Below, in pieces: positions 20,961 to 64,000 of a stretch of DNA of 64,000 bases. The notes under the pieces are model-generated. The model had not been told where the DNA came from. It ran no database searches and worked only from the letters and a program-made list of their open reading frames with translations. How positions within the stretch are numbered: position 1 is the first letter of the stretch; the number at the start of each line of letters is the position of its first letter. This stretch comes from Akkermansiaceae bacterium (GTDB taxonomy: Bacteria; Verrucomicrobiota; Verrucomicrobiia; Verrucomicrobiales; Akkermansiaceae), in contig JANXMQ010000177.1 of the NCBI GenBank assembly GCA_025354565.1, positions 1 through 64,000 on the forward strand. Reading direction: 5' to 3'. The position numbers were made by a program, and so were the translations under genes.

Positions 20961-22820
20961 ATGAAAAATCGTTGCCACGTCCCGCTTCTCGGAAGCCTGT
21001 TAGCCGCCCTCGCCCTCGCCGCTCCACTGCGTGCGGAAACGGCTTGGTGGAATCCCGCTTGGACCCACCGCCAAGCGATCACCATCGATTCCGACGCCGC
21101 CGCCGTGACTGATGTAACGGGCGACGTGACCGTGCTTGTCCGCCTATTCGACGCCAACCAATTCGCCGCTGCCCGCGAGGATGGCAGCGATCTACGGTTC
21201 CTCGCTGCCGATGACAAAACTCTCTTGCCTTATCAGATTGAGAGCTACGACAACCTCCTCAACGAGGGCTTCGTTTGGGTCAAATTGCCCGGCGTGAAGC
21301 CTGGCACCAAAAAGACCATCCATCTTTATTTCGGCAACTCCGACGCCGCCATGCCAGCCGCCGGAAAATCCACCGATGCCTTTGATGCCGACACCACGCT
21401 CGTCTATCACTTCGCCGGGCGTGGCGTGGCCCCCGTCGATGCCACCGCCAATGCGAACAACGCGGAAACCATCGGCACCACCGCAGAAGGCTCGCTCATT
21501 GGCAACGGTCTTCGCCTGTTAGGTGCTGCACCGCTCACCATTCCGAACACCGCCACCTTGGAATGGAAACAAGGCCAGACGCTGACGATTTCCACTTGGC
21601 TCAAGCCCGGTGCGCTCCAGGACAACGCCGTGCTTCTCAGTCGTGCCGATGGAAAATCCTCGTTCCGCCTGTTGTTAGATCAAGGCATCCCAGTCATCCA
21701 ACTCGACTCTAACCGTAGTGCGGCGGCAACTCCCATCGCCGCCGCCACTTGGTCCCATCTTGCCCTTGTCGCTGATGGGAAAACACTCAAGCTCTTCCTC
21801 AATGGCGCACCCTACGCCAGCATCGACGGCGCACTCCCCGCTCTAACCACTCCGCTCGCGCTCGGTGCTCCCGCCACCGAAACTCCCGGCACCACCGCCT
21901 ACGCCGGTGAGCTTGACGAATTTTCCATCTCGAAAATTGCCCGCAATCCCGCATGGATTAAGCTAGCCTTCGTCAATCAAGGTGCCAGCGACGCCGCCCA
22001 GAAAACCCTCGCCCTAGGCCAAATTGAAGGCGGAAAGGTAGAGGAACAAGGCGAGATCATGCAGCAAATCTCGCTCTTCACCGACATCGCCCACAACATG
22101 AAATTCGACGGCTGGATCGCCATCGGTGTCTGCGCCATCATGATCGTCGTCGGCTGGACCGTGGCCATCCGCAAGTTTTTCTATCTGAACTCGATTGAGA
22201 AAGGCACCAAGGAGTTTCTCAAAAAATGGAAATCCCTTGCCACCGATCTTACCGCACTCAATCCCGAGGACGAATCCAACGTCAGTAGCCTCGGTGGCAA
22301 GGTCGATCCCGACCAGCAGTCACTCGTCGAGAAATCGCCGCTCTATCATATCTATCAGATCGGCTCGGAGGAAATCAAACACCGCCTCGACAAAGATGGC
22401 TGTCGTGTCGAGGGCTTGTCCGGCCGGTCCATCCAGGCCATCCGCGCCAGCCTCGATGCTGGCTTGGTCCATGAAAGTCACCGCATCACCGACGGCCTGG
22501 TCTTCCTCACCATCAGCATCGCGGGCGGTCCTTACGTTGGCCTGTTAGGCACGGTCGTCGGCGTCATGATCACCTTCGCCATCATCGCCAAATCCGGCGA
22601 GGTGAACGTGAACTCCATCGCTCCCGGCATCGCCTCCGCCCTGCTCGCCACCGTCGTCGGCCTCATTGTCGCGATTCCCGCCCTGTTCATTTACAGCTAT
22701 CTCAACGGTCGAATCAAAAACTCGCTCGGCCTCATGCAGGTCTTCATCGACGAGTTCGTCGCCAAAATGGCCGAGTTCTATCGCCCGCCCCAAGAACCCG
22801 ACCAGAACAGCGGCAAGTAA
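20961..22820 (+). CDS. DUF2341-LamG-ExbB fusion protein
   Basis: A 619-residue protein with a signal peptide (MKNRCHVPLLGSLLAALALA, then APLRAE). Residues about 30-130 are DUF2341-like (WWNPAWTHRQAITID; KKTIHLYFGN). Residues about 145-345 form a LamG/concanavalin-like fold (LVYHFAGRG; TISTWLKPGALQ; ATWSHLALVADGKTLKLFLNG; AYAGELDEFSIS). After residue 380 it becomes a MotA/TolQ/ExbB proton channel with membrane segments at about 385-402, 512-540 and 556-580 (GPYVGLLGTVVGVMITF; LLATVVGLIVAIPA). The periplasmic lectin-like front is absent from ordinary ExbB. It would gate proton flow with the ExbD and TonB encoded next. Confidence 0.92.
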   Translation: MKNRCHVPLLGSLLAALALAAPLRAETAWWNPAWTHRQAITIDSDAAAVTDVTGDVTVLVRLFDANQFAAAREDGSDLRFLAADDKTLLPYQIESYDNLLNEGFVWVKLPGVKPGTKKTIHLYFGNSDAAMPAAGKSTDAFDADTTLVYHFAGRGVAPVDATANANNAETIGTTAEGSLIGNGLRLLGAAPLTIPNTATLEWKQGQTLTISTWLKPGALQDNAVLLSRADGKSSFRLLLDQGIPVIQLDSNRSAAATPIAAATWSHLALVADGKTLKLFLNGAPYASIDGALPALTTPLALGAPATETPGTTAYAGELDEFSISKIARNPAWIKLAFVNQGASDAAQKTLALGQIEGGKVEEQGEIMQQISLFTDIAHNMKFDGWIAIGVCAIMIVVGWTVAIRKFFYLNSIEKGTKEFLKKWKSLATDLTALNPEDESNVSSLGGKVDPDQQSLVEKSPLYHIYQIGSEEIKHRLDKDGCRVEGLSGRSIQAIRASLDAGLVHESHRITDGLVFLTISIAGGPYVGLLGTVVGVMITFAIIAKSGEVNVNSIAPGIASALLATVVGLIVAIPALFIYSYLNGRIKNSLGLMQVFIDEFVAKMAEFYRPPQEPDQNSGK

Positions 22821-22821
22821 A

Positions 22822-22856
22822 TCTCAAATTTGAAATTTCAAATCTCAAATCTCCAA
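22822..22856 (+). repeat. Heptanucleotide repeat array between exbB-fusion and exbD
   Basis: The 40-base spacer is made of five 7-base units: TCTCAAA, TTTGAAA, TTTCAAA, TCTCAAA, TCTCCAA. It contains the perfect 16-base palindrome ATTTGAAATTTCAAAT at 22828-22843. The next spacer (23274-23287) has two ACATTTA units. Comparable arrays occur at 45771-45885. Confidence 0.75.
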
Positions 22857-22860
22857 CTCA

Positions 22861-23274
22861 ATGGCCTCTGCCGACGACAAATCCTACGATGACATCAACG
22901 TCACCCCGATGGTGGACCTCTACCTCGTGCTGTTGCTGATTTTCATCATCATGACCACCGCCGGGGTGCAAGGGGTGAAGGTGAATCTCCCGAGCGCGAG
23001 CAAGGCCTCGTCGCCGAAACTCGATGCCCCCAAGACGCAGGCCATCACCATCGACCCCTCGGGAAAAATCCGTCTCAACACGATGCCCGTCACCCTCGCC
23101 GAACTTGAAACCAAGCTCGCCGCGCTCAAGGCCGCCACCCCCGCCGTTCCCGTCGTCGTCCGTGGCGACCGCGCCAGCCAATACCAAGGCATCATGGAGG
23201 TGCTCGACGTACTTGGCCGCGTCGGCATCAACCAGATCGGCCTCGCCACCCAGCCGCCGAAGGGCGGGAAATAA
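22861..23274 (+). CDS. exbD: ExbD/TolR biopolymer transport protein
   Basis: A 137-residue protein with one N-terminal membrane helix (PMVDLYLVLLLIFIIMTTAG). The helix holds the conserved aspartate of ExbD/TolR near its start, which couples proton flow to force generation. A periplasmic domain follows (VTLAELETKLAALKA; VVVRGDRASQYQGIMEVLDVL; then IGLATQPPK). It is located between the ExbB fusion and tonB genes with short spacers, so it belongs to the same channel. The upstream spacer is a heptanucleotide array, which leaves no Shine-Dalgarno sequence. Confidence 0.95.
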   Translation: MASADDKSYDDINVTPMVDLYLVLLLIFIIMTTAGVQGVKVNLPSASKASSPKLDAPKTQAITIDPSGKIRLNTMPVTLAELETKLAALKAATPAVPVVVRGDRASQYQGIMEVLDVLGRVGINQIGLATQPPKGGK

Positions 23275-53916: not shown

Positions 53917-54096
53917 TGGCGGATAGTTTGCGATAAATATGGAATGGCCGGAAGTGCAAAGATCAACCCAGAATCCCCCGTCAAATTCCGCGACAAGGGT
54001 ACACCAACACCGTCACCTGAAAAAAGTTTCCAAGTGTGAGGACAATCACGACTTGACACTACGAATCTAATGGCCCTCTCTTTTTCACCCGATTGT

Positions 54097-57048
54097 ATGC
54101 TGCGAAGAAAAACCCGATCATTTTCCGCGTGTCTGGTGTGCCTGCTGCTTGCTGGCATTCCGGCATCTCGTATGCAGGCCCAGAAACCCGCGCCCGCGCC
54201 CGCGCCGGTTCCATTTGTATCGCCAGCCACCTTGAACCGGCTTTTCAGCGAGGCCGAAGCCGCTTTCGCCGCGAAGGAATACGACAAGGCGGTGGCGAAA
54301 ATCCAGGAACTGCTCAAAGACCTCGGCCCGAACAAGGATGCCCCGCTGGAACTGCTCTATTTCAACATTGGCTTGGGATATCTGCTGGGAGGCAAGGCCC
54401 CCGAGGCGGAGGAAGCATTTACCGAATGTTTGAAGCGCTTCCCCCAGGGCAAGGGGGAGTTCGCTAGCCGCTGTTATCTAGGGGTTGGACGGGCCTGCAT
54501 TCTCCAAGATACCCCGGAGAAAAAGGAACGCGCCATCGAGGCGCTCAAGCTGGCCGCGCTGGACCCGAGATACCGTTCGGAAGCCGGACTCGGCCTGGGC
54601 CAGGTGCTGCTCGACCTGCACAAGCGGGATGAAGCGATGGTCGTGTTCAAGAGTTTGATGGGCTCGGACATCCGCTCGCCCGCCCAGACCACGGCTGCCG
54701 TTGAAGTCATCGGCTTGCTCGCCGATACCGGGAAACTCGAGGATCTCATTGCCTACCTGGACCGCCTGATTAACCAAAGCGGCGTCCGCGACGCCATTGC
54801 GTGGTACACGAATCAAGTCATCGTCCACGGCGATGAGCTGGTGAAAACGGAAGCCTATGACGCAGCACTGGCGATTTACCGCTCGATTCCCACGCGCGGC
54901 CAGATTCTGGAAACCCAGAAAGTCGCTCTGGAATCTCAGCGCAAGGACGTGAAAACCCTGGAAGCAAGGGTGGCAGTGGAGCAAAACTTGCCCATCAATA
55001 AACGTTCGAGTGCCTCGGACTACCTCAATAATCTTAAACCTGCCGTCGATTTGGCGGAAAAAGCCCTCGCCGCGATTGAAGAAAAGAAGGATCTGGATGC
55101 TGCCCTCCTGATGCGCCGCGGGCGTTGTCTCTACTACCTAAAGCGCTATGAAGAGGCCCTCCTCTGTTTCCGCACGCTCCGCCTGAAACATGGCACTGCA
55201 GAGGACGCCCAGCACGCCGCCTACGCGGAAATCGTCATCATGAGTGAGCTCAAGGACACCGCCCAGATCAAGGTGCTTTGCGACGCGTATTTGCGGAAAT
55301 ACCCAGCGGCTGACAACACCGAGCAAGTCGCCACCCTTGCTGGCGAGTTGCTCGTGCAAAGCGGCAAATGGGCAGATGTGGGCAAATTCTACCGCGACCT
55401 CGAAGAGAAATTCCCGAAGTCGGCAAACATGGACCGCTACACCTACTACCAAGCCGTTTCATTTTTCTATGACGCGAACTTCAAGGAGTCCGGCCCGATC
55501 TTTGCTAAGTTCCTCAAGAATTACCCGAGCAGCCCTTTGATCGAAAAAGGCTACTATTTCGTGGCCATGTCCAATTTCCTCCAAGGGGTGAACCGCTACA
55601 AAGAAACGCTTGCCTCCATCAAGGAATATCTCTCACGTTACCCGGAAGGGAATTTCGCTGGGGACATGCGCTACCGTCTGGCCTTCATCGACTATAACGA
55701 TACGGATGAGGATCAGACCGATAAGATTATCCGCGATCTCACCTCCTTCCTCATTCAACACCCGCAAGACCAATCTGTCGGCTCCATGTATTGCCTGTTG
55801 GCCGATACCTATAAGAAAAAGAAATCCCAGCTCCCTGACGAACTCGCAAGATTCCAGAGTCTAGCGATTGAAAATTACAAGAAAGCCGTCTGGTCGGAAA
55901 GCCCCGAGGACGTCGTCCAATACGCGCTTGAAGCTGCCACTTCGATGATGCAGGAGAACAAGGACTGGACCGGCATCGCAGCCCTGCACAGCGAGTTTCT
56001 CGAGAAAAAACCCAACAGCTCGCTGGTACTCAATTCGATCACTTGGATTGTCAAAACAAAGGCCCGCGAGGGCAAGGTGGACGAGGCGGCGGAAATGGTC
56101 GCCAACGCCCTCAAGCCGCGCATCGGCAACCCCGCCAGCGAACAGGTCGAACTCCTCATCGACGAACTCGTGAAAACCCTCGTCCCGCGGAAGAAGGCCA
56201 AGGATGTCGATATTGATGCCCTGGACAAACAGCTTATCGCTATTCTCAACAAAGCCATCGGCACCCAACAAAACGCTACCACCAACGCCCGGCTCTATTA
56301 CGCCCGCGCCCGACTCGCTCAGTTGCTCAAGCGCACCGAGATCTCGGACCAATACCTCAAGGGCGTAGCGACCATCAATGCCAAGGATCCCTCGGTCCTC
56401 AGCCCCGCGTTGCTCGCGGTATCCGGTGATATTCTGTTAAAGGATGGCAAGCTCGAAGATGCCGAAGCCATGTATCGCCGTCTTAGCGACCGCTTCACCG
56501 ACGGCAACTATGCGGATGCCGGACCCATGGGCCTTGGCTACATCGCTCTGGCGCGGAATAAGCCAGCGGAAGCGCTCCGAATTTTTGAGGAGTCGCTGGA
56601 TAAAAACCCCGGAATGTCGCGCTTCAAGGAAACGACGATTGGCAAGCTCCAAGCCATCATCGAAATCGGTGACCCCAAGGCCCTCCAAGAAGCGGAGAAA
56701 TTTGCTAAAGAAACCGTCGGTGACAAGAGCTTCCGGGGAGAATACGCGGGAAAACTCTACCTACTTCTCGGCAAAATCTATCGCAAGCAGTCTGAAAAGG
56801 CAGATGGCCCGGATGCAAAAATCGAGCTGCTCAAGCAAGCCTACGCCAATTATCAACACGTCTATATCGCTTACAAGAGCACCCCGGAAATCTGCGCCGA
56901 AGCCTACTGGCAGGCGTATGAAACCGCCACTGAAATGGGCAACAAGACCTATGCGGATGAGAATCTCCAAGCCTTGCTCGCCGACCCGAAGCTGAAAAAC
57001 ACCGAACGTTACAAGAAAGCCTCCGCTGGTGCCCCTGATTCCAAATGA
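54097..57048 (+). CDS. Exported TPR-repeat protein, first gene of the second ExbBD cluster
   Basis: About 983 residues from the ATG at 54097, which begins a signal peptide (MLRRKTRSFSACLVCLLLAG). The rest is built from TPR-like helical hairpins, for example EAEAAFAAKEYDKAVAKIQE, LLMRRGRCLYYLKRYEEAL, and a YYFVAMSNFLQGVNRYKETL stretch; these resemble YbgF/BamD-type periplasmic TPR arrays. No enzyme motif is seen. The 180-base spacer to uvrC has a TTGACA at 54053 with no well-placed -10. The stop overlaps the next start (ATGA). It probably acts as a periplasmic scaffold of the cluster. Confidence 0.88.
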   Translation: MLRRKTRSFSACLVCLLLAGIPASRMQAQKPAPAPAPVPFVSPATLNRLFSEAEAAFAAKEYDKAVAKIQELLKDLGPNKDAPLELLYFNIGLGYLLGGKAPEAEEAFTECLKRFPQGKGEFASRCYLGVGRACILQDTPEKKERAIEALKLAALDPRYRSEAGLGLGQVLLDLHKRDEAMVVFKSLMGSDIRSPAQTTAAVEVIGLLADTGKLEDLIAYLDRLINQSGVRDAIAWYTNQVIVHGDELVKTEAYDAALAIYRSIPTRGQILETQKVALESQRKDVKTLEARVAVEQNLPINKRSSASDYLNNLKPAVDLAEKALAAIEEKKDLDAALLMRRGRCLYYLKRYEEALLCFRTLRLKHGTAEDAQHAAYAEIVIMSELKDTAQIKVLCDAYLRKYPAADNTEQVATLAGELLVQSGKWADVGKFYRDLEEKFPKSANMDRYTYYQAVSFFYDANFKESGPIFAKFLKNYPSSPLIEKGYYFVAMSNFLQGVNRYKETLASIKEYLSRYPEGNFAGDMRYRLAFIDYNDTDEDQTDKIIRDLTSFLIQHPQDQSVGSMYCLLADTYKKKKSQLPDELARFQSLAIENYKKAVWSESPEDVVQYALEAATSMMQENKDWTGIAALHSEFLEKKPNSSLVLNSITWIVKTKAREGKVDEAAEMVANALKPRIGNPASEQVELLIDELVKTLVPRKKAKDVDIDALDKQLIAILNKAIGTQQNATTNARLYYARARLAQLLKRTEISDQYLKGVATINAKDPSVLSPALLAVSGDILLKDGKLEDAEAMYRRLSDRFTDGNYADAGPMGLGYIALARNKPAEALRIFEESLDKNPGMSRFKETTIGKLQAIIEIGDPKALQEAEKFAKETVGDKSFRGEYAGKLYLLLGKIYRKQSEKADGPDAKIELLKQAYANYQHVYIAYKSTPEICAEAYWQAYETATEMGNKTYADENLQALLADPKLKNTERYKKASAGAPDSK

Positions 57049-57932
57049 CCATGATCCCATCACCGCATATTTCCCGGTCGGCCTTGTTGGCCTGCGTAGC
57101 GGCAGCGCTTCCCTTCGGCTGGGCACGCGCTGCCGAGCAGCCGATCTCTCTGGTGTTGCAAAACGGTAGCTCAATCAACATTGCCTCCGTCGTTCTGCAA
57201 AACGGTGCGCTTGTGGTCCCCGCCACGGTCCTAGGCTTCACCGAGGGCCAGATCATCCCGGTGGAATCCGTCGATCACGTTTACGGCGATAAACCGGCGC
57301 AACTGAATCCGGCGATCGCCCTCTTGCTTTCGGATAAACCTGCCGATGCCCTGAAAATGCTGGAACCCATTCTAGCGTCCCAAAAAATCACCGCCAAATT
57401 TCCCGGGAATTTCTGGCTCGAAGCCGCCCGCGCCGCCTTGGTTGCCTACGCCGTGGATGGCAACTCCGCCAAATGCACGGAAATCGGCAAGGAAATTTCA
57501 GACGCCACCCCCGCATCAGGTGCTGATCCGTTTGTTGCGCTCGGCAGGGCTCTGCTCATGCCCGCCTCGACCAAGCCTCAGGAACGCGAGCAAGCTCTGC
57601 GTGACCTAGTGACTAGCGACCAGCCAGCGGATGTTTCCGCCTACGCAGCCATTTATCTCGGAAATTTGCTCAAAACCTACAAGCATAATCCTGACGCGGC
57701 AGAAGCTCTTAAGATGGATGCTCTAAATATGGATGCCTATCTTATGGTACCCTGCCTGTTCCCCTCCGGCGGGATGGTTCTCAATGCCGTCGCCGAACTC
57801 AAGGCCTCGTATTTTCTCTCCGCCCTCGGCCGTCCTAGCGAGGCCCTCGCCATCGTCAAATCCGCTATCCAACACTCCGCTGGAACAATGATCGCAGCGG
57901 AAGCGAACAAGCGGCTTGAAAGCCTCAAATAA
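57045..57932 (+). CDS. Exported protein with short beta N-domain and TPR-like helices
   Basis: A 295-residue protein with a signal peptide (ALLACVAAALPFGWARAAE). After it comes a small beta segment (ISLVLQNGSSINIASVVLQN), then alpha-helical TPR-like repeats (DALKMLEPILASQKIT; FPSGGMVLNAVAELKASYFL; SEALAIVKSAIQHS). I do not recognise a specific family. It overlaps the TPR gene by four bases and precedes the ExbB gene, so it is part of the same operon. It may sense or relay strain between the TPR proteins and the motor; this is inference. Confidence 0.75.
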   Translation: MTMIPSPHISRSALLACVAAALPFGWARAAEQPISLVLQNGSSINIASVVLQNGALVVPATVLGFTEGQIIPVESVDHVYGDKPAQLNPAIALLLSDKPADALKMLEPILASQKITAKFPGNFWLEAARAALVAYAVDGNSAKCTEIGKEISDATPASGADPFVALGRALLMPASTKPQEREQALRDLVTSDQPADVSAYAAIYLGNLLKTYKHNPDAAEALKMDALNMDAYLMVPCLFPSGGMVLNAVAELKASYFLSALGRPSEALAIVKSAIQHSAGTMIAAEANKRLESLK

Positions 57933-57977
57933 TCCGTCATTCTCTCCGTCTAGCAACCTCCCCATCCTATCCACGAC

Positions 57978-58760
57978 ATGAAAAAAACCATCCATCAGGC
58001 TGTCTATGCGGCACTGTTCCTCCTTCCCATGACCGCCTTCGCAGAAGGCCCGGCTCCTGCGGTCGTTAAGAAAACCTTTGTCGACGTGCTCAAAGACGGC
58101 GGTTGGTGCATGTGGCCTATCGCCGGTTTCTCGATTGCCACCGTTTGGCTCATCATTGACATCTGGATACGTACCAATGACAAGAAAATGGTCCCTGAGC
58201 AGGATGTCGTGGCCGCCCAGCAATCCTTTCTTGCCGGTGACTACATCGGTTGCTATCAGCTCATGAAAGTGGCCACCAGCCCTTTTGCCATGGTTGTTCG
58301 CGCTGCGCTTTCCTCCATCGGCTATGGCAAGTCAGCCACCGAGGAGGCTCTGGTCGCCGAGGTGGACAAAATCAGCTCCAAGCTCCAAACCCGCATCAAC
58401 TACCTCTCCGTCATCGGGGTTTGTACGCCGATGGTCGGTCTTTTGGGAACGGTTTCCGGGATGCGCGGTGCCTTCGCTGTCCTCGGTGGTTCGGGGATCG
58501 GCGATCCCAGCCTGCTCGCAGGCAAGATCGGTGAGGTGCTAATCGCCACCGCCTCCGGCCTGTTTATCGCCATCCCAGCCTTCATGGGCTTCTATTTCCT
58601 GCGTAATAAATTGCAGTCCGGTGTGCACCACCTTGAAGAAGAGGCCGAGCGACTCTTCCGCAACGCGCCCTATGATTACCTGAAGGACGCCGACGTCGGC
58701 CAAGAGGAAACCTACGCCGCCCTGCCGAACTGGCTTGACACCCCGCAAGGTGCCGCTTGA
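57978..58760 (+). CDS. exbB: MotA/TolQ/ExbB proton channel protein
   Basis: A 260-residue ExbB with a signal-like start (MKKTIHQAVYAALFLLPMTAF). Membrane helices lie at about residues 40-62 (WCMWPIAGFSIATVWLIIDI), 140-165 (VIGVCTPMVGLLGTVSGMRG) and 188-210 (VLIATASGLFIAIPAFMGFY). The second and third hold the ExbB-family G-L-L-G-T-V and small-residue patterns that form the channel. It precedes two exbD genes. In the pair with these it would drive the anchored cyclase-like protein rather than TonB. Confidence 0.94.
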   Translation: MKKTIHQAVYAALFLLPMTAFAEGPAPAVVKKTFVDVLKDGGWCMWPIAGFSIATVWLIIDIWIRTNDKKMVPEQDVVAAQQSFLAGDYIGCYQLMKVATSPFAMVVRAALSSIGYGKSATEEALVAEVDKISSKLQTRINYLSVIGVCTPMVGLLGTVSGMRGAFAVLGGSGIGDPSLLAGKIGEVLIATASGLFIAIPAFMGFYFLRNKLQSGVHHLEEEAERLFRNAPYDYLKDADVGQEETYAALPNWLDTPQGAA

Positions 58761-58802
58761 GCCATCCGCCTCTGAAAACCCAACAACTAACATTCAAACA
58801 CC

Positions 58803-59240
58803 ATGGCAGGCGGCGGCGGCGGAAGCGAGAGCGGGGAACCCGAGTTCCAGATTGCTCCCATGATCGATGTGCTGCTCGTGCTGCTCATCTTCTTCATGAG
58901 TATCACCTCCGCCGAGGTCTTGAAGGTGGATAAAAAAATTAAGCTCCCGGTTTCTCCCCATGCGACTAAACGGGACCCTGAAATGGCCAAGCATGAGATC
59001 GCCGTCAACGTGCGCTGGGATCCTCAGGCCAACAAATCCCTCCTTCTTGTCGATGACCGGGAATATCCAAACATCTCGGAACTTATCCCCTTCTTGAAGG
59101 AGCGGCGGGCCAAGGATGAGAAAGTCCGCGTCGTCGTCCGGGGTGATGCCAAACTACCCGCGATTGAAATTCAGCGCGTGATGAACCTCGTCGGTGAAGG
59201 GGGAATCGCTGATATTTCGTTCTCCGCTTCCAACAAATAA
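58803..59240 (+). CDS. exbD: ExbD/TolR protein, first of a tandem pair
   Basis: A 145-residue protein with a Gly-rich N-terminus and one membrane helix (QIAPMIDVLLVLLIFFMSIT) carrying the conserved channel aspartate. The periplasmic domain is LLLVDDREYPNISELIPFLK, then VVVRGDAKLPAIEIQRVMNL. The end is ADISFSASNK. It is followed six bases later by a second exbD; two ExbD proteins per ExbB pentamer fits known stoichiometry, so a heterodimer is possible. Confidence 0.94.
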   Translation: MAGGGGGSESGEPEFQIAPMIDVLLVLLIFFMSITSAEVLKVDKKIKLPVSPHATKRDPEMAKHEIAVNVRWDPQANKSLLLVDDREYPNISELIPFLKERRAKDEKVRVVVRGDAKLPAIEIQRVMNLVGEGGIADISFSASNK

Positions 59241-59245
59241 CCACC

Positions 59246-59701
59246 ATGAGAAAACGCAACCATCGCAAGGCCTCTGCCGAGGTCAACCTCGGGTTCCAAA
59301 TCGCACCGATGATCGACGTGGTATTCGTCATTATGCTCTATTTCATGGTCATGGCCGGTGCGGTGCAGGTCGAAAACGCGCACAACACGAAGCTCCCCGG
59401 CACCGTCGAACCCACTACCCGCGACACGGTGGTTCCGGATGAAATTGCCATCCGCATCGAGGATGACGGCCAAGTCTATCTGAACGACGATCCGCTCGAT
59501 GCTCCGAGCAGCAAGGAGTTGCCAGAACTCACCAAAAACCTCGTGGATCTACACACTAGCAGTGAAGCCGCGAAATCCAAAGTTCTAGTGACAATTTATG
59601 CCAACGAACTTGCGCGCTACGAAAGAGTGGTGGATGTTCTCGATGCCCTTAGCCAAGCGAAAATTTCAGATGTGACCTTCCAAGCCGGAAGTCCAGAATA
59701 G
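59246..59701 (+). CDS. exbD: ExbD/TolR protein, second of the tandem pair
   Basis: A 151-residue protein with a basic start (MRKRNHRKASAEVNLG) and one membrane helix (IAPMIDVVFVIMLYFMVMAG) with the channel aspartate. The periplasmic part differs from the first copy (EIAIRIEDDGQVYLNDDPLD; VLVTIYANELARYERVVDVL). The two copies therefore have similar helices and diverged outer domains. It precedes the cyclase-like gene by about 40 bases. Confidence 0.94.
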   Translation: MRKRNHRKASAEVNLGFQIAPMIDVVFVIMLYFMVMAGAVQVENAHNTKLPGTVEPTTRDTVVPDEIAIRIEDDGQVYLNDDPLDAPSSKELPELTKNLVDLHTSSEAAKSKVLVTIYANELARYERVVDVLDALSQAKISDVTFQAGSPE

Positions 59702-59740
59702 TGATTGATTTCAAATCCCCAACCCCAACCTAACACGACC

Positions 59741-61303
59741 ATGGAAATTTACGATGAAGAGGGAAATCCGATTGTCATTGAAGAACGCAAGATCGGGATG
59801 TGGCAGAAAATCGGTGGTGGATCGCTGATGTTCGCCGCGCTGTTCCACTTGATTCTATTAATCATCGGTGCGTTCTGGATCTTCCAAGTCACCCGTGAGC
59901 CCGAGAAAAAAGTCGATTTCATGCCACCCGGCGGCGGCGGTGGCGAACGCAGCGCCGAGCATCAGGTGAACAATAAAAAGCGGGCGGTAATCACCCCGAC
60001 AACCAACGTCAAGCGGGTCTTCGCCGAAGGCGCGACCGCCACCTACGCCATCCCCGAACAGGGTGATAACTTCGGGGAAATGTCCACCCTCAGCTCGCTC
60101 AGCGGCGGCGGCATGAGCGGCGGCTTGGGCGGCACCGGTAATGGTAAAGGCTTCGGCCATGGATCTGGCAACGGAGGTGGCCTCGGCAATGGTGCCGGTA
60201 AGGGTAAATTGTTCGGACTGCTACCTGATACCATGGGCAAGCGCTGTTCAAAGGAGGACCGTCTCCAACGCCTCGCGCAAAATGGCGGAAACCCCGCCTG
60301 TGAGGAAGCCGTCGTGAAATCCCTGCGCTGGCTCAAGGCCCACCAGAATACTGACGGATCATGGGGCAACGCCACTCAGCCTGCACTGACCGGCCTGGTC
60401 CTGCTTGCCTACTTCGGCCATTGTGAAACCCCGAGCTCCGAGGAATATGGCGACTCCTGCACAAAGGGCATCCTCTATCTGATCGACGTGGGAATGAAGA
60501 ACAATGGCAAGATGGCCTCCAATTTCACCGCCAATAGCTGGGTTTACGAGCACGGCATCGCGACCTACGCCCTCGCTGAGGCGCAGACTTTCTGCAAGGA
60601 TCTCAAACCGGAGATTCCCTACCTCTCAGAAGTCGCCCAGAAGGCAGGCCAGTTTATCATCGACAATCAGAACGCTAACGGCGGGTGGGCCTACGCCTAC
60701 GCCACGTCCGCCGGTCACACGGATACCTCGGTCGCCGGTTGGCAGCTCCAAGCCCTCAGGGCATGCAGTCATACCGGACTCAAATACAATCAGATGACTG
60801 CCTGCGTTGACAAGGGACTTAAATACATGATCAGTTGTCAGAATGCAAATGGCGGATTTGGCTATTCCGGTCCGGGTGCTCCGGCTGGCAATGGCAAGTT
60901 TTTTTCGCTGACTGGCGTAGGTGCCCTTTGTCTCCAGATGTGGGGCAAGGGCGGCAGCTCTGATGTCCGCAAAGGCGTGAAATACATCAAGGAAAACGCA
61001 AAGCTGGATTGGAATACGCAGGAGTCGGACCTCTACTCCCATTATTACATGTCCCAAGCGATGATGCAGGCGGGTGGTGAAAACTGGAACGCTTACAATG
61101 CTATTTTCCGTGACCAATTGCTCAACAACCAGAATGCCGATGGCTCATGGAAGCCGACCGGTTTCGCGGGACACGGCGGTGGCAGCGATATCTACCGTAA
61201 CGCGTTCTCTACCCTCATGCTGGAAGTCTATTACCGCTTCCTCAGCACCGGCGGTGGCGGCGGTGCTGGCGGTGGCGTCATGGGCGGACCACACCGGATT
61301 TGA
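59741..61303 (+). CDS. Membrane-anchored squalene-cyclase-like repeat protein, possible TonB substitute
   Basis: About 520 residues from the ATG at 59741; the frame is open from 59705. One membrane helix at about residues 28-48 (GSLMFAALFHLILLIIGAFW) follows a short cytoplasmic end, as in TonB. Then come a Gly/Pro-rich linker (PPGGGGGERSAEHQ) and a Gly/Asn-rich stretch at about 110-165. The C-terminal 350 residues carry QW-type repeats of prenyltransferase/squalene cyclases: HQNTDGSWG, NQNANGGWAYAY, CQNANGGFGYSG, NQNADGSWKPTG. The DxDD cyclase acid motif is not seen. It sits where TonB would be, between ExbBD sets, so a force-bearing, non-catalytic toroid is likely. Confidence 0.8.
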   Translation: MEIYDEEGNPIVIEERKIGMWQKIGGGSLMFAALFHLILLIIGAFWIFQVTREPEKKVDFMPPGGGGGERSAEHQVNNKKRAVITPTTNVKRVFAEGATATYAIPEQGDNFGEMSTLSSLSGGGMSGGLGGTGNGKGFGHGSGNGGGLGNGAGKGKLFGLLPDTMGKRCSKEDRLQRLAQNGGNPACEEAVVKSLRWLKAHQNTDGSWGNATQPALTGLVLLAYFGHCETPSSEEYGDSCTKGILYLIDVGMKNNGKMASNFTANSWVYEHGIATYALAEAQTFCKDLKPEIPYLSEVAQKAGQFIIDNQNANGGWAYAYATSAGHTDTSVAGWQLQALRACSHTGLKYNQMTACVDKGLKYMISCQNANGGFGYSGPGAPAGNGKFFSLTGVGALCLQMWGKGGSSDVRKGVKYIKENAKLDWNTQESDLYSHYYMSQAMMQAGGENWNAYNAIFRDQLLNNQNADGSWKPTGFAGHGGGSDIYRNAFSTLMLEVYYRFLSTGGGGGAGGGVMGGPHRI

Positions 61304-61424
61304 GACTTTCTCCCAGACCGCGGCGGATCCGTGAAATGCTGACGGCTTTTTGCGCGTAACCCCGGACGTATCCACTTCCTTGGGCTTGCGTTCGCTGGCT
61401 GCGGCAGTAAACTCTCCAACCTTC

Positions 61425-62276
61425 ATGAAGTGCAGTCACCTCTCAATCGCGGTTTTTTCCTACTCCGCACTTCTCGCATCCGCCGCGGCGGAAAGCCCGG
61501 CTCCAGTCGCCAAGGAAATGAACTTCCTCGAAATCCTCGCGAAGGGTGGCATCATGATGTATCCGCTAGGTTTATTGTCGATTTTCACCGTATTGTTGAT
61601 TCTCATCTTCATTCTAACAATCCGTCGCAATGCAATCATTAGCGACCGCTTCATGAACAACGCCGATTCGCTGATCCGCAAGCGTGACTACCTCGGCCTT
61701 GTCGCCCTGAGCCATCGCCGCAACGAGTGCATGGCCCGAATCATCCAGAAAACTCTGGATTTCATCACTGCCAATCCGGGTGTGGCCTTTGAAAACATCC
61801 GCGAGGTCGCCCAAGTCGAGGGCTCTCACCAGGCGGGAATGCTGACTTCCAGAATCACCTACCTGGCCGACATCGGCGCGATCGCCCCAATGGTCGGGCT
61901 GCTTGGCACCGTGCTCGGCATGATCGAGGCCTTCATCGAGATTTCTAACGGCGAGGTCGCCGGAGTCCGCCAGATGGGCTTGGCCGAAGGGGTTTCCAAG
62001 GCACTGATCGCCACTGCTGGCGGCCTTGCCATCAGTATCCCGGCCCTTGCGTTTTATTCGATCTTCCGGGGCCGAGTGCAAAAATACGTTGCGGAACTCG
62101 AAGCCGGTGCCACTCACTTCATCGCCCTGCTTCAAACTCAGTTCGAACGCCAGACCAGCCAGACTCCCCAGGCCCAGCATTATGCCAACCCGGTGCAACA
62201 ACGGGCCCGTGAGGACTATGCCATGCCGGTTGCGTCCCCCCTGGCCGGTGAGCGGCCCGACCTCCACGGCATCTAA
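61425..62276 (+). CDS. exbB: MotA/TolQ/ExbB proton channel protein, second of this cluster
   Basis: About 283 residues from the ATG at 61425; an upstream in-frame start at 61350 is less likely. A signal-like N-terminus (IAVFSYSALLASAAAESPAP) is followed by helices at about 42-63 (GIMMYPLGLLSIFTVLLILI), 150-175 (APMVGLLGTVLGMIEAFIEI) and 195-215 (ALIATAGGLAISIPALAFYS). The C-terminus is a Gln-rich tail (QTSQTPQAQHYANPVQQ). It is paired with the exbD gene 12 bases downstream. It forms the second motor of the cluster. Confidence 0.94.
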   Translation: MKCSHLSIAVFSYSALLASAAAESPAPVAKEMNFLEILAKGGIMMYPLGLLSIFTVLLILIFILTIRRNAIISDRFMNNADSLIRKRDYLGLVALSHRRNECMARIIQKTLDFITANPGVAFENIREVAQVEGSHQAGMLTSRITYLADIGAIAPMVGLLGTVLGMIEAFIEISNGEVAGVRQMGLAEGVSKALIATAGGLAISIPALAFYSIFRGRVQKYVAELEAGATHFIALLQTQFERQTSQTPQAQHYANPVQQRAREDYAMPVASPLAGERPDLHGI

Positions 62277-62287
62277 CTAACCCAGGG

Positions 62288-62707
62288 ATGAAATTCTCAA
62301 ACCGTCAGCCACCAGCGATCGCCATTCAGTTGGCCCCGATGATTGACATCCTGCTGCTGCTGCTGAGTTTTTTCATCATCAGTTGGCAGTTCAGCAAGTC
62401 CGAGACGGAGTTGAAAGTCTCCGTCCCGACGGCCCAAGAGGGCGCGGAGGCCGAGCGACCACGTGGCGAAATCATCATCAATGTGCTCGCCGATGGCACC
62501 ATCCGGGTTGAAGGACTCACCGTGGATGCGTTGCAGCTTTTTGAAAAACTTTCCGCCATCGCCAAACAATATCAAAACCAACCAGTCCGGCTCCGCGGTG
62601 ATGGCGGCGTGGCCTATCAGCGTATTGTCGAGGTCATCGACATCTGTCAAAAAGCCGGAATTTGGAATATCTCCTTCGCCACCCAACACCCGACTCCCGA
62701 AAAGTGA
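62288..62707 (+). CDS. exbD: ExbD/TolR protein of the second motor
   Basis: A 139-residue protein. The single helix (QLAPMIDILLLLLSFFIISW) carries the channel aspartate. The periplasmic domain includes EIIINVLADGTIRVEGLTV and VRLRGDGGVAYQRIVEVIDI, ending IWNISFATQHPTPEK. It follows exbB by 12 bases. The next gene is a TPR protein that begins about 44 bases after the stop, from a TTG codon. Confidence 0.94.
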   Translation: MKFSNRQPPAIAIQLAPMIDILLLLLSFFIISWQFSKSETELKVSVPTAQEGAEAERPRGEIIINVLADGTIRVEGLTVDALQLFEKLSAIAKQYQNQPVRLRGDGGVAYQRIVEVIDICQKAGIWNISFATQHPTPEK

Positions 62708-62750
62708 TTCGCTTGGCAAACGCCTGCAACCGGTCCAATCTCTCCGCACC

Positions 62751-64000
62751 TTGAAACGCGCCCTCGCCCTCCTGCTCCTCGCCGCCGCCCCGTTGACCGC
62801 CCAAGTGCCGCGGGCCGGAGCCGTCGATCCAGCGTTGAGCCCGGATGCCGCGAATGACTATTTCCTCCGGGGAAAAAATCTCTACGACTCCGCCCAAGCC
62901 GCCACCACTCAGGACGGGCGACTGGTTTTTTTTCAACGCGCGGCCCAGATTTTCGCCGATTACCTCACCTCCTTTCCGAACCACCCGAACGCGGAAATGG
63001 CGTGGTGGTACCTCGGCAACAGTTATTATCAATCGGGCCAGATCGACGATGGGAAGCGCTGTTTCAGCACCTTGATGAACCGCTACGGCAACGGCAAGTG
63101 GGCCGCCGCCGCCGCCTATACCCTCGCCGCGGATCATTACAATAAAGGCGAATATATCTTTGCCGCGCCCCTCTTCGAGCGCTTTGCCGCCAATACCGCG
63201 AAGCCCGAGGAACGCTCTCGTGGCAACTATCTGGCAGGAAATTCTTACCGCTTTCTCAGCCGCGACCGAGAGGCGATCGGGGCCTTCAAAAAAGTCATCC
63301 AGGATCCGGCTGGCGGCCTTTACGCCCCACAAGCCAAGGTCGCCCTCGGTCATCTATCGCTCAAGGCGGGAAAACTTCAGGAAGCACTCGACCAGTTCGA
63401 GGAGGTGATCGCCACCGCCGCTTATTCCGCGAAAGTCCGGGGTGAGGCAGCCCTCCACGCCGCGCTCACCGCCACCAAACTCGACCACCCGGATCTCTCG
63501 GACAAATATCTCCAAATGGTCCTCACCTCGCCCGGCATGGAAGATTTCCGCCCAGATGCCCAGACCGCGTTGATGGCCAACCTATTCGCAAAAAATCAGT
63601 TCCGTGAGGTCATCGACGCCTTCCGCCGCAGTGCGGTCAAAGCGACCGGCGATAAGGAAGGTAGCCGCCTGATGCTCGCCGGACGCGCCTACATGCGGCT
63701 GAAACAACCGACCGAGGCCCTGCAACTTTTCCGCGAAATCGAGCGGATTTTGAAACCGGAAACGGACATGGCGTTTCAAGCGTCCTACTACCGCTTGCTC
63801 TGCTTTTTCGACATCGAGGGCCGCCATGTGCCGGATCAGGTGGATGCGTTCCTCCAGTTATACCGCAAGTCCCGCCCGGAAGATCCGCACATCCACATGG
63901 CGCTGATGATGAAGGCAGAAACTCTGTTCGCTAACAAGGAAACCGCCGCTGCTGCCAAAGTTTACAGTGAGATCAACGCCGCTGCCGTCAGCGACAGCAA
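62751..64000 (+). CDS. Exported TPR-repeat protein, cut by the window edge
   Basis: The frame opens at TTG 62751 and runs off the right edge after about 416 codons. The start gives a clear signal peptide (MKRALALLLLAAAPLTAQ), and no ATG lies nearby in frame. TPR-like helices follow: AEMAWWYLGNSYYQSGQIDD, then AAPLFERFAANTA, AKVALGHLSLKAGKLQEALD, and RLMLAGRAYMRLKQPTEALQ. It matches the role of the TPR gene at the other end of the cluster. TTG as start is inferred from the signal peptide. Confidence 0.8.
   Translation, partial: MKRALALLLLAAAPLTAQVPRAGAVDPALSPDAANDYFLRGKNLYDSAQAATTQDGRLVFFQRAAQIFADYLTSFPNHPNAEMAWWYLGNSYYQSGQIDDGKRCFSTLMNRYGNGKWAAAAAYTLAADHYNKGEYIFAAPLFERFAANTAKPEERSRGNYLAGNSYRFLSRDREAIGAFKKVIQDPAGGLYAPQAKVALGHLSLKAGKLQEALDQFEEVIATAAYSAKVRGEAALHAALTATKLDHPDLSDKYLQMVLTSPGMEDFRPDAQTALMANLFAKNQFREVIDAFRRSAVKATGDKEGSRLMLAGRAYMRLKQPTEALQLFREIERILKPETDMAFQASYYRLLCFFDIEGRHVPDQVDAFLQLYRKSRPEDPHIHMALMMKAETLFANKETAAAAKVYSEINAAAVSDS

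What the first reader, a model, noticed from the sequence alone, without database searches (positions are those of the whole stretch)
54097..64000. Second energized envelope cluster: two ExbB, three ExbD and a toroid protein replacing TonB
The order is TPR, unknown, ExbB, ExbD, ExbD, anchored squalene-cyclase-like protein, ExbB, ExbD, TPR. The cyclase-like protein has TonB topology (one helix, Pro/Gly linker, periplasmic domain) but a QW-repeat toroid instead of a TonB domain. No DxDD motif is seen, so a structural or glycan/lipid-binding force transducer is more likely than an enzyme.
Basis: partly seen in the sequence, partly recalled or inferred. Interest (0 to 1): 0.8.

Follow-up and report, generated by a model that had tools for sequence, protein, structure and literature searches.

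The report
Membrane motor with swappable periplasmic heads
These bacteria (Verrucomicrobiota) carry a proton-driven membrane motor of the TonB/Tol kind that, in place of TonB, appears to drive a membrane-anchored protein ending in a barrel resembling a squalene cyclase, and the same anchor is reused on other end domains, which suggests one motor powering several different envelope tools.

Summary
The gene order is real: TPR, TPR-like, ExbB, ExbD, ExbD, anchored toroid, ExbB, ExbD, TPR. The toroid protein has one TM helix, a Gly-rich linker and a confidently modelled barrel matching squalene-hopene cyclase (Z 27, 2.7 A), but the catalytic Asp is missing. In 33 of 60 sampled toroid loci ExbB/ExbD lie beside it, in 19 family codes of the phylum, mostly as TPR-TPR-ExbB-ExbD-ExbD-toroid.

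Two findings go further. The TM helix carries Ser/Ala-x3-His, the motor-docking pair of TonB/TolA; it is present in all 111 aligned copies of this N-terminal "plug". And the plug is also fused to PA14-like and vWA-like heads, up to 11 plug proteins per genome; the plug tree follows host family, not head. Plug and ExbB orthologue are both present in 62 genomes, both absent in 71, and disagree in 9 of 142.

Best reading: a modular force-transducer system. The vWA version was published in 2025; toroid and PA14-like heads on a shared plug were not found in the papers searched. What the toroid grips is unknown, and coupling has not been shown experimentally.

The parts
54070..57048 (+). TPR1: 992-aa periplasmic TPR protein with a signal-like N-terminus
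   Evidence: TPR families, YbgF-like stretch 85 bits. Orthologues occur in the same 15 of 40 genomes as the ExbB1 orthologue.
57045..57932 (+). Second periplasmic protein (295 aa): small beta domain plus TPR-like helices
   Evidence: No Pfam or NCBIfam hit; model pLDDT 88; only weak Foldseek matches, many of them TPR proteins. In distant loci a 264-272-aa TPR protein takes this place.
57978..58760 (+). ExbB1 (TolQ/ExbB-like pore subunit)
   Evidence: PF01618 82 bits. TolQ Thr145 and Thr178 (essential, PMC12905483) align to T158 and T191.
58803..59240 (+). ExbD1
   Evidence: PF02472 69 bits; APMID motif with proton-binding Asp22 (alignment).
59246..59701 (+). ExbD2, a different ExbD (29% identical to ExbD1 over 136 columns), probably its partner in a mixed dimer (inference)
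   Evidence: PF02472 70 bits; BLASTP with ExbD1; APMID motif with Asp24. The ExbD pair recurs across the phylum.
59705..61303 (+). Toroid transducer, 532 aa (TTG start; ATG at 59741 also possible)
   Evidence: PF13243 35 bits; model; fold match 2sqc Z 27.0, rmsd 2.7, 281 aligned.
59816..59890 (+). TM helix 38-62 with A44-x3-H48, the equivalent of TonB/TolA Ser-x3-His
   Evidence: His in 111 of 111 aligned plug domains, Ser or Ala four residues before it in all 111.
59891..60229 (+). Disordered Gly-rich linker (residues 63-175), starting with the conserved EKKVDFMP stretch that lies where TonB has its motor box
   Evidence: 29 Gly in 113 residues; pLDDT mostly under 50; A5-TonB comparison in register but weak.
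60230..61240 (+). Alpha/alpha toroid head; conserved Arg180, Glu241, Tyr281, Glu292, Asp340, Ser342, Tyr444, Arg511
61350..62276 (+). ExbB2 of a second motor without a transducer of its own here
   Evidence: PF01618 96 bits; 33% identical to ExbB1. Its place varies: downstream, upstream of TPR1, or absent.
62288..62707 (+). ExbD3 of the second motor
   Evidence: PF02472 96 bits.
62751..64000 (+). TPR2: periplasmic TPR protein, likely start TTG 62751, continues to 65129 of the contig

Best explanation
A proton-driven motor (five ExbB1 around an ExbD1-ExbD2 pair, inferred) with TPR partners drives a TonB-like transducer whose TonB domain is replaced by a cyclase-like toroid. The transducer's TM helix docks on the outside of ExbB through Ala/Ser-x3-His; a long Gly-rich linker crosses the periplasm; the toroid binds a partner at the cell wall or outer membrane and transmits pull or rotation. 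In relatives the same docking plug is fused to PA14-like or vWA-like heads, so one motor serves several exchangeable tools. Shown: gene order, its conservation, the shared plug, the invariant His, co-occurrence with the motor, loss of the cyclase catalytic Asp. Inferred: docking, stoichiometry, force transmission, place of action. Unknown: the toroid's partner.
For: Operon TPR-TPR-ExbB-ExbD-ExbD-toroid across the phylum: motor genes beside the toroid in 33 of 60 loci, 19 family codes (more in 32). His in the TM helix of all 111 aligned plug domains regardless of head; Ser and His of S-3x-H-6x-L-3x-S form the contact hub with ExbB/TolQ TM1 in TonB and TolA structures (PMC12905483). [SAGT]xxxH in 51 of 56 motor-adjacent toroids against 18 of 102 others. 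Plug homologous between toroid and PA14-like protein (E 3e-17) and vWA protein (E 8e-24); in two genomes of the same genus (G255, G244) the motor operon carries a vWA or a PA14-like plug protein upstream and no toroid after ExbD. 112 plug ORFs: 47 toroid, 32 PA14-like, 31 vWA-like in two clusters, 2 incomplete or unassigned. Plug tree: 3 changes for host family, 29 for head, on the same 98 rows. Plug present with ExbB1 orthologue 62, both absent 71, plug only 6, ExbB only 3 of 142 genomes (Fisher 3e-29). Motor residues intact. The same layout with a vWA head was modelled on the motor by others (PMC12204202).
Against: No complex was modelled and no experiment exists. The Leu and second Ser of the SHLS motif are not kept (Gly/Ala and Val/Ile instead), and the query has Ala44 where many have Ser. 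The profile match of the distant plugs to TonB is weak (probability 2.7%, E 0.017). His and motor go together, but on the toroid tree only two independent transitions support this. Five toroids counted as having a motor lack the His. Related His-less toroids exist without this motor, so the head also has a motor-independent role. The co-occurrence test ignores relatedness of the genomes. That one motor serves all plugs is inferred from co-occurrence and the tree; most genomes have several ExbBs.
Confidence: 0.77

Rival explanations
1. The toroid is an enzyme acting on a lipid, glycan or cell-wall substrate, and the motor only positions or gates it.
For: Many residues of the head are invariant or nearly so, including Glu241, Tyr281, Glu292, Asp340, Tyr444 and Arg511. 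After cyclases, the barrel's best fold matches include sugar epimerases and GH76 mannanases.
Against: The catalytic Asp376 of squalene-hopene cyclase is replaced by Thr339 in a variable column. The same plug carries PA14-like and vWA-like heads, which are usually binding domains. No known active-site set was identified.
Confidence: 0.2
2. The toroid protein is a regulator or assembly factor of ExbB1-ExbD (for example a lock on the motor), not an output shaft.
For: Operon conservation and the docking helix would look the same. Two TPR proteins in the operon could be the real link to the outer membrane.
Against: The docking motif and topology are those of TonB and TolA, which are output proteins; several different large heads on one plug fit outputs better than regulators.
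Confidence: 0.15
3. Neighbourhood by descent only: toroid proteins are unrelated to the motor and merely stayed next to it.
For: 27 of 60 sampled toroid loci have no motor genes beside them (a few are cut by contig ends), and many genomes of the family keep toroids without the ExbB1 motor.
Against: The toroids of motor-less genomes lack the His while 49 of 54 toroids with a motor have it (0 of 17 without; only two independent transitions). Plug proteins that are not next to the motor still occur almost only where the ExbB1 orthologue occurs, with 9 exceptions in 142 genomes.
Confidence: 0.05

Closest known systems
vWA-type motor-driven force transducers (Williams-Jones et al. 2025, PMC12204202)
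   Same: TPR, TolQ-like, pair of different TolR-like genes, then an inner-membrane-tethered protein with TMH, SHLS-type His, about 100-residue linker and a globular head; found in PVC bacteria.
   Different: Head is a cyclase-like toroid (or PA14-like) instead of vWA. The paper's main text does not mention toroid or cyclase or 'PA14 domain', and its section 8 does not describe a plug shared between head types.
TonB-ExbB-ExbD and TolA-TolQ-TolR
   Same: Motor subunits with conserved essential residues; transducer with one TM helix carrying Ser/Ala-x3-His, disordered linker, periplasmic C-terminal domain.
   Different: No TonB_C domain, two unlike ExbDs, two TPR proteins, no TBDT, TolB or Pal gene seen in the cluster; Leu and second Ser of SHLS absent.
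Squalene-hopene cyclase and other class II terpene cyclases
   Same: Alpha/alpha toroid with QW-type repeats; 2sqc Z 27.0, 2.7 A over 281 residues; PF13243 above cutoff.
   Different: One barrel only, predicted membrane-anchored with the head in the periplasm, no DxDD: Asp376 is Thr339, only the last Asp (Asp340) is kept.

Membership tests
ExbB/TolQ-ExbD/TolR motor | MotA_ExbB and ExbD domains above curated cutoffs | tested here: met
   82, 69, 70, 96, 96 bits
ExbB/TolQ-ExbD/TolR motor | Essential Thr pair of ExbB/TolQ and Asp of ExbD/TolR | tested here: met
   T158, T191 in ExbB1; Asp22 in ExbD1; Asp24 and Asp20 in ExbD2 and ExbD3 by reading the APMID motif
ExbB/TolQ-ExbD/TolR motor | 5:2 assembly, proton-driven | not testable with these tools
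   No complex prediction or experiment available
TonB/TolA | Single N-terminal TM helix, linker, periplasmic C-terminal domain | tested here: met
   (periplasmic side inferred from topology)
TonB/TolA | Ser-3x-His-6x-Leu-3x-Ser in the TM helix | tested here: inconclusive
   Ser/Ala and His kept in 111 of 111 plug domains; Leu and second Ser not
TonB/TolA | TonB_C / TolA C-terminal domain | tested here: not met
   C-terminal domain is a PF13243 toroid; no TonB_C above cutoff on this contig
vWA-type force transducer class (PMC12204202) | Operon TPR, TolQ-like, two different TolR-like, tethered transducer | tested here: met
vWA-type force transducer class (PMC12204202) | vWA head | tested here: not met
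   Toroid head in the window protein; vWA heads on the same plug in relatives
Class II terpene cyclase | Alpha/alpha toroid fold | tested here: met
   2sqc Z 27.0
Class II terpene cyclase | DxDD catalytic motif | tested here: not met
   Catalytic Asp376 aligns to T339, variable column
Class II terpene cyclase | Terpenoid cyclisation activity | not testable with these tools
   Needs an assay

The most novel reading that the evidence does not exclude
One proton-driven motor per cell serves a whole set of transducers that share one docking plug but carry exchangeable heads (toroid, PA14-like, vWA-like), the plug evolving with the host's motor while heads are swapped: a modular power take-off in the Verrucomicrobiota envelope.
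Probability: 0.6. Interest if true: 0.82.

Novelty: new variant of a known kind. Interest (0 to 1): 0.74.

Why it matters
TonB and TolA are the textbook outputs of this motor type; a vWA output was added in 2025. Here the same motor layout carries a cyclase-like toroid across much of a phylum, and a shared docking helix links it to vWA and PA14-like outputs. If right, these bacteria use one energy source for several envelope tasks, and a single residue (His48) gives a direct test. It also warns that proteins of this family that match squalene-cyclase or prenyltransferase models are probably not enzymes of that kind.

Tried and rejected
Literature searches for this toroid with ExbD gave nothing relevant; the library lacks most subscription papers, so absence is weak evidence. 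The TonB profile comparison puts Ser/His and the motor-box strand in register but is not significant. The full SHLS motif was looked for and not found. The His-motor link looks strong in raw counts but rests on two independent transitions. Neighbours of the orphan PA14/vWA plug genes were not compared with background, so no function was drawn from them. Promoter and terminator scans were at chance level. Planctomycetota could not be searched: the one scan of named genomes kept only Verrucomicrobiota. Only the toroid and the small TPR-like protein were modelled; no complex could be predicted. A class II cyclase function was considered and rejected because the catalytic Asp is absent.
Full report
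What is there. The window is G000:C204:1-64000 of a 5.1-Mb assembly; its closest named relatives are Akkermansiaceae and other Verrucomicrobiota, though the assembly itself is unnamed. They lie on one strand with gaps from -4 to +46 bases, followed by an arginine-decarboxylase-like gene beyond the window (name from the sequence, not tested). Promoter and terminator scans gave nothing above chance. The 295-aa 'unknown' is a small beta domain plus TPR-like helices.

The toroid protein. It has a TM helix at 38-62, a Gly-rich disordered linker of 113 residues and a barrel mostly modelled at pLDDT above 90. Against solved structures it matches squalene-hopene cyclase best (2sqc Z 27.0, rmsd 2.7 A, 281 residues; other class II cyclases at Z 25-26; sugar epimerases and GH76 mannanases at Z 22-23). 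By sequence it also hits the cyclase. The catalytic Asp376 aligns to Thr339, whose column is mixed, while the neighbouring Asp340 is nearly invariant (74 of 76). Other conserved residues (Arg180, Tyr281, Glu292, Ser342, Arg511 in 75-76 of 76; Glu241 in 72) leave room for a ligand site or another activity.

Conservation. Relatives were found in 198 of 388 genomes of the phylum. In 60 fetched loci, 33 have ExbB and/or ExbD beside the toroid, in 19 family codes, and most show TPR-TPR-ExbB-ExbD-ExbD-toroid; named Akkermansiaceae and Verrucomicrobiaceae loci show the same. TPR1 and ExbB1 orthologues occur in exactly the same 15 of 40 genomes (orthologues told from paralogues by the gap in bit scores). 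The second ExbB-ExbD is less fixed: downstream, upstream of TPR1, or absent.

The docking motif. TonB and TolA dock on ExbB/TolQ through Ser-3x-His-6x-Leu-3x-Ser, of which Ser and His form the contact hub (PMC12905483). Motor-adjacent toroids have [SAGT]-x3-His in the helix in 51 of 56 cases, others in 18 of 102. Leu and second Ser are not kept. The A5 profile of distant plugs aligns with E. coli TonB with Ser and His in register, but weakly (probability 2.7%, E 0.017); it does match the plug profile of the window's order (probability 90%, E 1.5e-6). On the toroid tree the link between motor and His is 49 of 54 against 0 of 17, but rests on two independent transitions, so it is not significant by itself.

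A shared plug with different heads. In relatives the N-terminal 95 residues ('plug') are joined to other domains. L061, L062 and L201 carry PA14-like heads, L202 a vWA head; BLASTP of the plug gives E 3e-17 with L201 and 8e-24 with L202. In G244 and G255, of the same genus as the window, the TPR1-ExbB-ExbD-ExbD operon has no toroid after it and a PA14-like or vWA plug protein before TPR1. A second, more distant motor cluster ends in a vWA protein (L206-L208), the layout published in 2025 (PMC12204202).

How widespread. A profile of the plug found 68 of 142 genomes of the order, up to 11 plug proteins in one genome (G308). Of 112 plug ORFs in fetched loci, 47 are toroid-headed, 32 fall in the PA14-like cluster, 20 and 11 in two vWA-like clusters and 2 are incomplete or unassigned. 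Cluster names rest on members with Pfam matches, several below the curated cutoff; the cluster of 20 had no Pfam match in the members scanned and is called vWA-like from its DVSGSM motif. All 111 plug domains with a residue at that column have His, and all have Ser or Ala four residues earlier. The plug tree needs 3 changes for host family but 29 for head type on the same 98 rows, with few columns and many unresolved forks. This fits plugs evolving with the host's own motor while heads are exchanged.

Co-occurrence. The ExbB1 orthologue is present in 65 of the 142 genomes. It and the plug are both present in 62 and both absent in 71; six have only the plug (four with weak hits in one family, two fragmented assemblies) and three only ExbB1 (Fisher 3e-29, not corrected for kinship).

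Mechanism. Shown: layout, conservation, shared plug, invariant His, motor residues, loss of the cyclase Asp. Inferred: ExbB pentamer with an ExbD1-ExbD2 pair, plug helix on ExbB TM1, force through the linker to a head that holds a wall or outer-membrane partner; TPR proteins as partners in the way of CpoB in Tol-Pal (analogy only). Not known: the partner of any head.

Own genome. It has two plug proteins, both toroid-headed (C204 and C120, 54% identical), two canonical TonBs elsewhere and a single TonB-dependent receptor barrel hit, so the toroid system is additional to a Ton system.

Place in what is known. It works like TonB/TolA but is not a member, as the TonB domain is absent. It matches the operon and topology of the published vWA transducer class but not its head. 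It has the cyclase fold but not the cyclase motif. I therefore call it a new variant of a known kind. The searches of open-access papers found no description of the toroid or PA14-like versions; subscription papers were not covered.

Noticed in passing
20961-23256: Another ExbB, fused to DUF2341 and Laminin_G_3 domains, followed by an ExbD (22879-23256): a different energised cluster in the same window.
   Followed up: no
L243-L302, genes beside orphan PA14/vWA plug genes: Planctomycete cytochrome proteins (PSCyt1, PSCyt2, PSD1; 6 of 79) and DUF1501 (4 of 79) are the commonest neighbour families; background abundance was not measured.
   Followed up: partly
L080, L081, L083 (G113, G221, G033): Two to three toroid genes in tandem with His-less TM helices and no motor genes nearby. 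The contig length of G113 (2,664,102) equals, from memory, that of A. muciniphila ATCC BAA-835.
   Followed up: partly
L211:4978-7267 (G000:C142): A 395-aa protein with a TM helix and no Pfam match precedes another ExbB-ExbD pair: possibly one more unusual transducer.
   Followed up: no
L206:9654-16710, L207:3010-10034, L208:3247-10064: Second, paralogous motor cluster (TPR1-like, ExbB, ExbD, ExbD) ending in a vWA protein; the ExbB ORF of L206 is 600 aa long.
   Followed up: partly
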